Source of the DNA: Collimonas antrihumi
GTDB taxonomy: Bacteria; Pseudomonadota; Gammaproteobacteria; Burkholderiales; Burkholderiaceae_D
Assembly (NCBI RefSeq): GCF_018304965.1
Contig: NZ_JAGQED010000027.1
Coordinates: 1 to 61,465, forward strand
DNA: 61,465 nt
Direction of reading: 5' to 3'
The notes under the pieces are model-generated. The model searched no databases and was not told where the DNA came from. It worked only from the letters and a program-made list of their open reading frames with translations. Below, in pieces: positions 25,951 to 27,339 of the stretch (within the stretch, counting starts at the first letter, position 1; every line of letters begins with the position of its first letter). The position numbers and the translations under genes were made by a program.

Positions 25951-27165
25951 TTACTTCTTGATCTGGCTAATCACGTCCGACAACATGGCGATCATCTGGT
26001 CGATTTCTGCAATCGTCACGTTCAGCGATGGCATGAAGCGCAGCAGGTTCGGCCGCGGCGAGTTGAGCAGCAGGCCGACCGGATTCAGGTCGCGCGCGAT
26101 ATCGACAATTTGCGGACCGATGTCGCTGCCCAGTTTCAACGCCCGCAACAAACCTTCGCCACGCTCGCCTTCGAGTCCGTGTTTTTCGGTAAGTTTCAAC
26201 AACTCGCTGCTCAGGTAGGCACCCTTGTCTTTTACCGACTGCAGGAAGCCAGGCGCCAGCAAGGTATTGATCACCGCCAGGCCGACCGCCGTCATCAACG
26301 GATTGCCATTGTAAGTACCACCCTGGTCGCCGGCCTCGAAGCAAGCGATCTCTTCCCGCGCCAATAATGCCGCCAGCGGCACGCCGCCGCCGATGCCTTT
26401 ACCGAGCGTCATGATATCCGGGGTGATGCCGGACAATTGATAAGCAAACAGCTCGCCGCTACGGCCCATGCCGGATTGCACTTCGTCGACGACCAGCAAG
26501 ATGCCGCGCTTTTTGGTCAGTTCGCGCAAGCCTTGCATGAATTCGCGGGTCGCCGGGATCACGCCGCTTTCGCCCTGTACCGGCTCCAGCATGACCGCTA
26601 CGGTCTTGTCGTTGATCAGCTTTTCGACACTGGCCAGATCGTTCAGCTCGGCTTTAGGGAAGCCCGGCACTTGCGGCGCAAAAATGGTATCCCAGCCCGG
26701 CTTGCCGCTGGCTGACATGGTGGCCAGGGTGCGACCATGAAAGCTATGGTTGAAAGTGATGATTTCAAACCGGTTCTGGCCGTCCTGGTTCGGATTCTTC
26801 TTGCCCCATTTGCGCGCCAGCTTGATCGCGCCTTCATTGGCTTCAGCGCCGCTGTTGGTGAAAAACACGCGGTCGAAGCAGGAGTTGGCGGTCAGCAGGC
26901 GCGCCAGTTCAATCGACGGCGCATTGTAAAAGGCCGGCGAAGGATTGATGATCTTCTTCGATTGTTCCAGCAGCGCATCCTGGATGCACTGCGGCGAGTG
27001 GCCCAGCGAATTGACGGCCCAGCCCTGCAGGTAATCCAGGTAGCGCTTGCCGGCATGATCCGTCATCCACATGCCGTCGCCTTCGGTAAACACCAGAGGA
27101 GGGCGGTTGGTGATGTACATCAGGTCGTCGACCGGATAATCGCTGAATTTCACGCTGTGTTCCAT
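25951..27165 (-). CDS. argD: Acetylornithine/ornithine-type aminotransferase (class III)
   Basis: A 404-residue PLP enzyme. Motifs are [20 protein letters not shown] (cofactor phosphate binding), [31 protein letters not shown] and the PLP lysine in LGKGIGGG (about residue 253). ArgD makes N-acetylornithine in arginine synthesis; related enzymes act in ornithine or arginine breakdown. The start at 27165 has GGAG seven bases upstream. A promoter, an arginine-rich leader peptide and a perfect terminator lie directly upstream, which supports a role in arginine synthesis under attenuation. Confidence 0.87.
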
Positions 27166-27185
27166 ATGGCTACTCCAAATTAAGG

Positions 27186-27215
27186 GCAAAAAAAAACCAC
27201 AGGCATCGCCTGTGG
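27186..27215 (-). terminator. Attenuator terminator upstream of argD
   Basis: CCACAGGC-GAT-GCCTGTGG followed by nine T on the minus strand: a perfect 8-bp intrinsic terminator. It lies after the leader-peptide stop (20-base gap) and 21 bases before the argD ATG, on the same strand, so argD can be transcribed from the upstream promoter only by reading through it. Confidence 0.88.
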
Positions 27216-27234
27216 CTTCGTGATCAATCGACGG

Positions 27235-27303
27235 TCACGCGCACGGCTTACCAGGCTGAGGTAATGGGCTACGGCGTCGCAACAATGTCTTGATCATGTT
27301 CAT
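27235..27303 (-). CDS. Putative arginine leader peptide (22 residues)
   Basis: The frame encodes MNMIKTLLRRRSPLPQPGKP plus CA, with three consecutive arginine codons (CGA CGC CGT, 27279-27271). It starts seven bases after a consensus -10 box, so the messenger is leaderless or nearly so, and stops 20 bases before the terminator. TTACC (27264-27260) can pair with GGTAA (27252-27248). GCCTGG (27256-27251) can pair with the 5' arm of the terminator (CCACAGGC) with one bulge. Stalling at the Arg codons would cover TTACC and leave GCCTGG free as antiterminator. The layout is seen; the mechanism is inferred. Confidence 0.6.
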   Translation of the reverse strand: MNMIKTLLRRRSPLPQPGKPCA

Positions 27304-27310
27304 GACGCAA

Positions 27311-27339
27311 ATATTAGGACCTTTTGTGTGGTGCGTCAA
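27311..27339 (-). promoter_or_regulatory. Consensus sigma-70 promoter of the argD leader
   Basis: On the minus strand TTGACG (27339-27334) and TAATAT (27316-27311) are separated by exactly 17 bases. Transcription should begin at about 27304-27302, at or next to the leader ATG. Confidence 0.8.

What the first reader, a model, noticed from the sequence alone, without database searches (positions are those of the whole stretch)
27186..27339. Arginine-type transcription attenuator with a leaderless peptide before argD
Seen: a consensus promoter with 17-base spacing, an ATG seven bases past the -10 box, a 22-codon frame with CGA CGC CGT in a row, a perfect 8-bp terminator with nine T, then argD. 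Also seen: TTACC/GGTAA can form a hairpin, and GCCTGG inside it can pair with the terminator's 5' arm. Ribosome stalling on the Arg codons would mask TTACC and free GCCTGG as antiterminator, so low arginine would switch argD on. Known: attenuation by leader peptides is classical for trp, his and leu operons. I know of no described arginine leader of this kind in this group. The antiterminator pairing is weak (5-6 bp), which is the main doubt.
Basis: partly seen in the sequence, partly recalled or inferred. Interest (0 to 1): 0.8.

Follow-up and report, generated by a model that had tools for sequence, protein, structure and literature searches.

The report
Arginine-sensing RNA switch before argD
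In front of an arginine-making gene, many bacteria of the order Burkholderiales carry what is very probably a short RNA switch that reads a tiny arginine-rich gene and lets the enzyme gene be copied only when arginine runs low; it matters because the relatives searched lack the usual arginine repressor, and in one branch the same RNA is already listed as a small RNA.

Summary
In detail: promoter TTGACG-17-TAATAT, an ATG 7 nt behind it, a 22-codon frame with CGA CGC CGT, a terminator, then argD. It is not chance. A strict detector finds this architecture before 104 of 139 related argD genes and before 0 of 695 shuffled copies; it occurs in nine family groups of Burkholderiales.

Best reading: a ribosome-mediated, arginine-specific, leaderless transcription attenuator. 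A better one is: GCCGUG near the leader's stop codon pairs with CACAGGC of the terminator (97.4%); without a ribosome the Arg-codon strand pairs with that same segment (92.3%).

The Arg run starts with CGA in 89 of 93 leaders, a codon making up 28 of 1536 Arg codons in argD genes. ArgR was not found (0 of 40; 0 of 200 above cut-off). The Burkholderia form is Rfam RF02884 (BcKCsr7): 21 of 22 matches lie directly before argD and contain the Arg frame; a review reports Bc_KC_sr1-7 as expressed. Arginine dependence is untested. Known mechanism; I found no description of this member.

The parts
27334..27339 (-). -35 box TTGACG
   Evidence: the -35 begins TTGAC in 92 of 104 detected leaders
27311..27316 (-). 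-10 box TAATAT; ATG follows after 7 nt, so the leader mRNA should start at or next to its AUG
   Evidence: distance 6 or 7 nt in 90 of 94 unique leaders
27235..27303 (-). leader ORF, 22 codons, MNMIKTLLRRRSPLPQPGKPCA, stop TGA; no room for a Shine-Dalgarno
   Evidence: the four distinct indels inside the ORF in A2 are multiples of 3, the three after the stop are 1 nt
27271..27279 (-). regulatory codons CGA CGC CGT (Arg-Arg-Arg)
   Evidence: CGA first in 89 of 93 unique leaders with an RR run vs 28 of 1536 Arg codons in 86 argD genes
27272..27283 (-). segment 1: Arg-codon strand that pairs with segment 2 when no ribosome covers it
   Evidence: helix 3, 92.3% of cells paired in 26 leaders; MFE
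27234..27247 (-). segment 2: GCCGUGCGCGUGAC at the leader's end and stop codon; GCCGUG is the antiterminator strand
27208..27218 (-). segment 3: terminator 5' arm AAGCCACAGGC (CACAGGC pairs with segment 2)
   Evidence: 97.4% of 156 cells paired, one cell changed on both sides (G-C to A-U)
27188..27204 (-). segment 4 (terminator 3' arm) and nine-T tract
27173..27176 (-). GGAG, presumed Shine-Dalgarno of argD
   Evidence: sequence
25951..27165 (-). argD, acetylornithine transaminase, type NF002985/PRK03715
   Evidence: 733 bits, cut-off 568

Best explanation
It is a classical-type, ribosome-mediated transcription attenuator that senses charged arginine tRNA and controls argD. Transcription starts at or beside the AUG of the leader ORF, which is translated leaderless. 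With enough arginine the ribosome runs through CGA CGC CGT to the UGA, which lies inside segment 2; it covers segment 2, so segment 3 pairs with segment 4 and transcription stops before argD. When Arg-tRNA is short the ribosome stalls on the CGA-led Arg run and covers segment 1; segment 2 (GCCGUG) is freed and pairs with segment 3 (CACAGGC), so the terminator cannot form and argD is transcribed. With no translation, segment 1 holds segment 2 and the terminator forms. Shown here: elements, conservation, pairings that change together, codon bias. Reported by others: expression of the sRNA that I identify with the Burkholderia form. Inferred: leaderless translation, stalling, and the response to arginine.
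For: Architecture in 104 of 139 upstream regions vs 0 of 695 shuffles. In an even sample of the order, 46 of 300 genomes have this argD and 27 of the 46 have the leader (26 by the detector; L131 by eye), in session family groups f1, f3, f5, f14, f23, f31, f35, f39 and (by eye only) f20. Frame-preserving indels. CGA leads the run in 89 of 93 leaders though CGA is 28 of 1536 Arg codons in argD; its third base is left unpaired in the 1:2 stem, so pairing does not explain it. Antiterminator 97.4%, Arg-codon stem 92.3%, terminator 92.0% of cells paired in 26 leaders. Antiterminator strand and terminator arm differ together between lineages: CCGUG/CACaGG, CCUGGGC/GCCaCAGG, CCGcUGGC/GCCACGG, UGCGGCC/GGCCGCA, GCGCGcGC/GCCGCGC, CGUGGC/GCCACG; 18 of 41 representatives rank in the best 5 of 100 shuffles, as do E. 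coli thrL, leuL and trpL (1, 1, 0) in the same test. ArgR: 0 of 40, 0 of 200 over cut-off. The Burkholderia form is RF02884; a review says expression of Bc_KC_sr1-7 was confirmed (PMC6321483, passages; that RF02884 is Bc_KC_sr7 rests on its name BcKCsr7).
Against: In the window itself the antiterminator is modest (-7.0 kcal/mol, 11 of 100 shuffles do as well), weaker than the terminator core (-16.6); E. coli hisL is also weak in this test (16 of 100). 23 of 41 representatives do not reach the top 5 of 100. In the arm-swap test cognate pairs are better on average (-9.2 vs -6.6) but best in only 2 of 14 columns. Control (a) for the antiterminator is not extreme: 23 of 500 column shuffles reach the observed value, since only one cell carries a two-sided change; the terminator shows no two-sided change. 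In group f5, and in some other loci (L101, L103, L118), segment 2 lies more than 25 nt before the stop, so a ribosome at the stop would not cover it. The reduced-genome Collimonas (L014/L035) shows no antiterminator. Nine of the 104 leaders have weak promoters (score under 8), and for L072, L078 and L092 the detector took an inner ATG. 34 of 139 show no leader, some within Oxalobacteraceae. argF, argG, argC and argJ of this genome have no such leader. I have no expression or arginine data for the window's organism.
Confidence: 0.88

Rival explanations
1. Nascent-peptide sensor: arginine or ornithine binds in the ribosome with the leader peptide and causes arrest (as recalled for SpeFL and ornithine), rather than Arg-tRNA shortage causing stalling.
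For: The C-terminal residues (PxPGxPCA) are fairly conserved in part of Oxalobacteraceae, and orf34 of speF is an Arg-codon leader (PMC6386406, passages).
Against: The peptide outside RR(R) differs strongly between families, and in L104, L105, L107 and L108 (Undibacterium) the TGCGCGT nucleotides stay although they lie behind the stop, which points to a constraint on RNA. No Pfam match at E 1 for two leader peptides.
Confidence: 0.05
2. The primary product is a trans-acting small RNA or small protein (as RF02884 is filed), and the place before argD is incidental.
For: RF02884 is filed as an sRNA gene; the review speaks of predicted targets for the Bc_KC group (PMC6321483, passages).
Against: Linkage to argD is kept: 29 of 30 strong model R1 loci that were fetched (L153, L158-L186) and 21 of 22 RF02884 matches have argD in the flank; an Arg-codon frame and switchable stems are not needed for an sRNA.
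Confidence: 0.04
3. A constitutive terminator plus a chance Arg-rich ORF; argD is driven mainly by read-through from upstream genes.
For: Some lineages have no leader and argD follows the reductase gene closely.
Against: 0 of 695 shuffles, frame conservation, CGA bias and antiterminators that differ together with the arm.
Confidence: 0.02

Closest known systems
Leader-peptide attenuators of amino-acid operons (E. coli trpL, leuL, thrL, hisL)
   Same: Short ORF rich in the cognate codon, intrinsic terminator before a biosynthetic gene, antiterminator pairing of the same energy range in my test (-4.9 to -9.9 against -7.0).
   Different: Arginine as the sensed amino acid; no Shine-Dalgarno (leaderless); stop codon inside segment 2; CGA-led codon run.
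Sinorhizobium meliloti trpL (rnTrpL/peTrpL)
   Same: Attenuator ORF whose RNA starts with the ATG codon, so it may act as a leaderless mRNA (PMC7298713, passages).
   Different: Tryptophan, alphaproteobacterium; roles in trans are reported there and untested here.
speF leader orf34 (gammaproteobacteria)
   Same: Two consecutive Arg codons sense arginine by ribosome pausing (PMC6386406, passages).
   Different: Rho-dependent termination, RNase G and RBS access instead of an intrinsic terminator switch; polyamine gene; has a Shine-Dalgarno.
Rfam RF02884 BcKCsr7 (presumably Bc_KC_sr7)
   Same: The Burkholderia form of this element: 21 of 22 matches lie directly before argD, on its strand, with an RRR frame inside.
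   Different: Filed as an sRNA; the passages I read do not connect it with argD, arginine or attenuation. The window's own leader does not match this model.
ArgR repressor regulation of arg genes
   Same: Same pathway and signal.
   Different: Protein repressor; described as absent outside gammaproteobacteria in the set of PMC5343134 (passages), and not found here.

Membership tests
Ribosome-mediated (leader-peptide) transcription attenuators | Short ORF with a run of codons for the amino acid made by the controlled gene's pathway | tested here: met
   RR in 93 and RRR in 75 of 94 unique leaders before argD
Ribosome-mediated (leader-peptide) transcription attenuators | Intrinsic terminator between leader ORF and structural gene | tested here: met
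   92.0% of 286 cells paired in A2
Ribosome-mediated (leader-peptide) transcription attenuators | Antiterminator exclusive with the terminator | tested here: met
   97.4% of 156 cells, one cell with a two-sided change; strands differ together between lineages; modest energy in the window, 11 of 100 shuffles as good
Ribosome-mediated (leader-peptide) transcription attenuators | Regulatory codons in a strand that pairs with the antiterminator strand | tested here: met
   92.3% of cells in helix 3
Ribosome-mediated (leader-peptide) transcription attenuators | Ribosome at the leader stop covers the antiterminator strand | tested here: inconclusive
   472 of 684 predicted pair partners lie in an assumed -15/+14 footprint; 0 in the six f5 loci
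Ribosome-mediated (leader-peptide) transcription attenuators | Read-through rises when the amino acid is limiting and depends on leader translation | not testable with these tools
   needs an experiment
Rfam RF02884 BcKCsr7 | Covariance model at or above the gathering score | tested here: not met
   window leader: no RF02884 match (E up to 1, L153); the three Burkholderia-type loci L115-L117 do match
speF leader / DUF2618 (PF10940) | Pfam match of the leader peptide | tested here: not met
   no Pfam family at E up to 1 for 2 leader peptides
ArgR-regulated arg gene | An arginine repressor (PF01316) in the genome | tested here: not met
   0 of 40 relatives incl. own genome; in 200 genomes of the order 2 weak matches, 0 over cut-off

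The most novel reading that the evidence does not exclude
The argD leader is the master arginine sensor of ArgR-less Burkholderiales: its CGA-led run reads the charging of one inosine-containing arginine tRNA, and the terminated leader RNA (in Burkholderia, BcKCsr7) or its peptide also acts in trans on other genes, which would explain why argF, argG, argC and argJ of this genome show no leader of their own.
Probability: 0.1. Interest if true: 0.85.

Novelty: new member of a known kind. Interest (0 to 1): 0.62.

Why it matters
It proposes how arginine synthesis can respond to arginine in a large order in which I found no ArgR repressor, adds arginine to the amino acids sensed by the trp/his/leu type of attenuator, and gives an entry filed as a Burkholderia small RNA (RF02884) a concrete, testable identity. 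The near-exclusive CGA start of the Arg run is a natural test of the idea that attenuators choose the codons most sensitive to tRNA charging (that idea is recalled, not looked up here).

Tried and rejected
TTACC/GGTAA as the key switch hairpin: weakly kept (57.7%). Other Arg leaders in this genome: model R1 gives one strong hit, at argD; three weaker ones (28.8, 24.8, 24.0 bits) have no argD in their flank and look like unrelated hairpins, and the last (19.9) is the antisense of the argD terminator; argF, argG, argC, argJ upstreams show none (argB, argH, argA, carAB not looked at). R1 was built from Oxalobacteraceae and is insensitive elsewhere (L131 scores E 0.28), so 'no leader' in 34 of 139 means not detected. 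Arm-swap test: only mild support. Rfam on the window stretch: one lncRNA match below its gathering score. Ten paper searches listed no described arginine attenuator before argD; most subscription papers are not held; the paper cited for Bc_KC_sr1-7 is not held; supplements could not be opened, so argD may be among the 82 'short 5' UTRs' of PMC5688073 (passages read). In PMC4603805 (one section part and passages) argD is not named. Rows dropped before counts: L018-L030 (other ArgD type, under 60% identity) from the 139; identical leaders collapsed to 94 (from -35) or 93 (from ATG); 41 of the 93 distinct leaders chosen by hand for the shuffle test, 14 for the swap test, 26 for A2. Eight groups of loci have identical leaders, for example L001, L002, L003 and L031, so 104 of 139 are not independent; codon counts likewise.

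Full report
What is there. On the minus strand of the window a sigma-70-like promoter (TTGACG, 17 nt, TAATAT) stands 7 nt before an ATG. The frame from that ATG has 22 codons, MNMIKTLLRRRSPLPQPGKPCA, with CGA CGC CGT in a row. A terminator hairpin with nine T follows, then a GGAG and argD. ArgD is the acetylornithine transaminase NF002985. One of 200 shuffles folds as well as the leader RNA (z -3.39). The closest named relatives found are Collimonas (97% identical ArgD).

Is it more than chance? I collected 139 upstream regions of this argD type: 17 from relatives, 80 named loci and 42 more from an even sample of the order. A detector demanding promoter, ATG 3-12 nt after the -10, an 8-45 codon frame with RR or three R, and a terminator within 90 nt of the stop is positive in 104 of 139. 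The same detector gives 0 of 695 on dinucleotide shuffles, 1 of 79 on window ORF upstreams (argD itself) and 0 of 12 on upstreams of the other ArgD type; 58 positives among 474 ORF upstreams of L031-L099 are all the argD leader as far as listed (12 listed, 46 by position; five are repeats through a frame inside argD). One further positive was missed by the detector and seen by eye (L131). In the even sample 46 of 300 genomes have this argD and 27 of these 46 have the leader (26 by detector, plus L131), in nine family groups, f20 by eye only. Of the 35 not detected, 34 also give no match to a covariance model of the leader, which is however insensitive outside Oxalobacteraceae; L131 gives a weak one.

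Is the frame translated? The ATG lies 6 or 7 nt from the -10 in 90 of 94 unique leaders, which leaves no room for a Shine-Dalgarno, so translation must be leaderless if it occurs. In the alignment of 26 leaders the four distinct indels inside the frame are multiples of three and the three after the stop are single bases. The first codon of the Arg run is CGA in 89 of 93 leaders, and CGA makes up 136 of 395 leader Arg codons against 28 of 1536 in 86 argD genes; related sequences are not independent, so I give no p-value weight. In the 1:2 stem the third base of this CGA is unpaired, so base pairing does not explain its conservation. CGA, CGC and CGU are all read by the inosine-bearing arginine tRNA (recalled).

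How it switches. Counting pairs over 26 leaders: GCCGUG near the leader's end with CACAGGC of the terminator's 5' arm is kept in 97.4% of 156 cells, with one cell changed on both sides (G-C to A-U; in L062 by the alignment), and 23 of 500 column shuffles reach the observed values. The Arg-codon strand pairs with the same end segment in 92.3% of cells of an 11-pair helix. The terminator is kept in 92.0% and hardly varies. These are the three exclusive pairings of a classical attenuator. Folding the RNA that a ribosome stalled on the Arg run would leave free gives at least 5 antiterminator pairs in 87 of 93 distinct leaders, and in 82 of 93 at all three ribosome edges tried. The two strands differ together between lineages. 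Against dinucleotide shuffles 18 of 41 hand-picked representatives rank in the best 5 of 100, mean z -1.46; the window's own leader is at 11 of 100 with -7.0 kcal/mol. The same test puts E. coli thrL, leuL, trpL and hisL at 1, 1, 0 and 16 of 100. Swapping arms between 14 representatives gives -9.2 for cognate and -6.6 for foreign pairs, but the cognate is best in only 2 of 14 columns, so that test is mild. In family group f5 segment 2 lies far before the stop, so the high-arginine step must work differently there.

Genome setting. The arginine repressor domain PF01316 is not found in 40 of 40 relatives, the window's genome included, and no genome of 200 from the order reaches the curated cut-off (2 of 200 have weak matches below it), while 9 of 14 control genomes ring. 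The AraC-type ArgR of Pseudomonas (recalled) was not tested. A covariance model of the leader finds one strong copy in the window's genome, at argD, and hits in 84 of 145 genomes of the family at E 0.1 or better, many of the weak ones probably chance. Of the 30 strong loci fetched (L153, L158-L186), 29 have argD in the flank; in L182 the leader is intact but a GNAT-like acetyltransferase (my reading of the translation, no family search) stands where argD should be. The argF, argG, argC and argJ upstreams of the window's genome show no Arg leader.

A listed RNA, unrecognised. Rfam finds RF02884, BcKCsr7, 'Burkholderia sRNA 7', on the leaders of the three Burkholderia-type loci L115-L117, and the family consensus itself contains the Arg frame and the terminator. 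In 60 genomes of that family 21 have a match (18 above the cut-off); the 21 best matches lie 22-132 nt before the argD match, on its strand, with an RRR frame that starts CGA inside, and the one further, weak match has no argD in its flank (22 matches in all). A review says that expression of Bc_KC_sr1-7 was confirmed in B. cenocepacia KC-01 (PMC6321483, passages); the paper it cites is not held, and that RF02884 is Bc_KC_sr7 rests on the name. So a transcript of this element has very likely been seen in one branch and filed as a small RNA. That it is the attenuated argD leader is my inference.

Known or new. The mechanism is the trp/leu/thr kind. An attenuator RNA starting at its ATG is known (S. 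meliloti trpL, PMC7298713, passages) and so is arginine sensing by Arg codons (speF orf34, PMC6386406, passages). In the passages I read of three surveys (PMC2965389; PMC8632094; PMC1262725) no arginine leader before argD is described, and ten paper searches listed none. I therefore file it as a new member of a known kind, with high confidence in the kind and no measured response yet.

Noticed in passing
L182 (G343:C11), 1501-1617 and downstream: An intact leader (MNTSIKLFRRRTHLPLPGKPCV plus terminator) is followed by what reads like a GNAT-family acetyltransferase instead of argD, with a dihydrolipoamide dehydrogenase gene nearby as in the window; the attenuator seems to have been kept while its gene was replaced.
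   Followed up: partly
L115, L116, L117, L197-L217: Rfam family RF02884 (Burkholderia sRNA 7) is the argD leader of the Burkholderia branch and could be re-annotated.
   Followed up: yes
L005, L006, L007, L010-L013 upstream of the leader: In several Collimonas the sequence upstream of the promoter differs, yet the block from the -35 box to the terminator is almost unchanged, as if promoter and attenuator stay with argD as one unit.
   Followed up: no
L014/L035 (Collimonas with a 1.7 Mb genome): Shortened leader MKQIKTLLRRHGIFQW with an altered terminator and no predicted antiterminator; possibly a decaying switch.
   Followed up: no
L130, 2801-2977: A manganese riboswitch (RF00080) match lies near argD in one family-f23 genome.
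   Followed up: no
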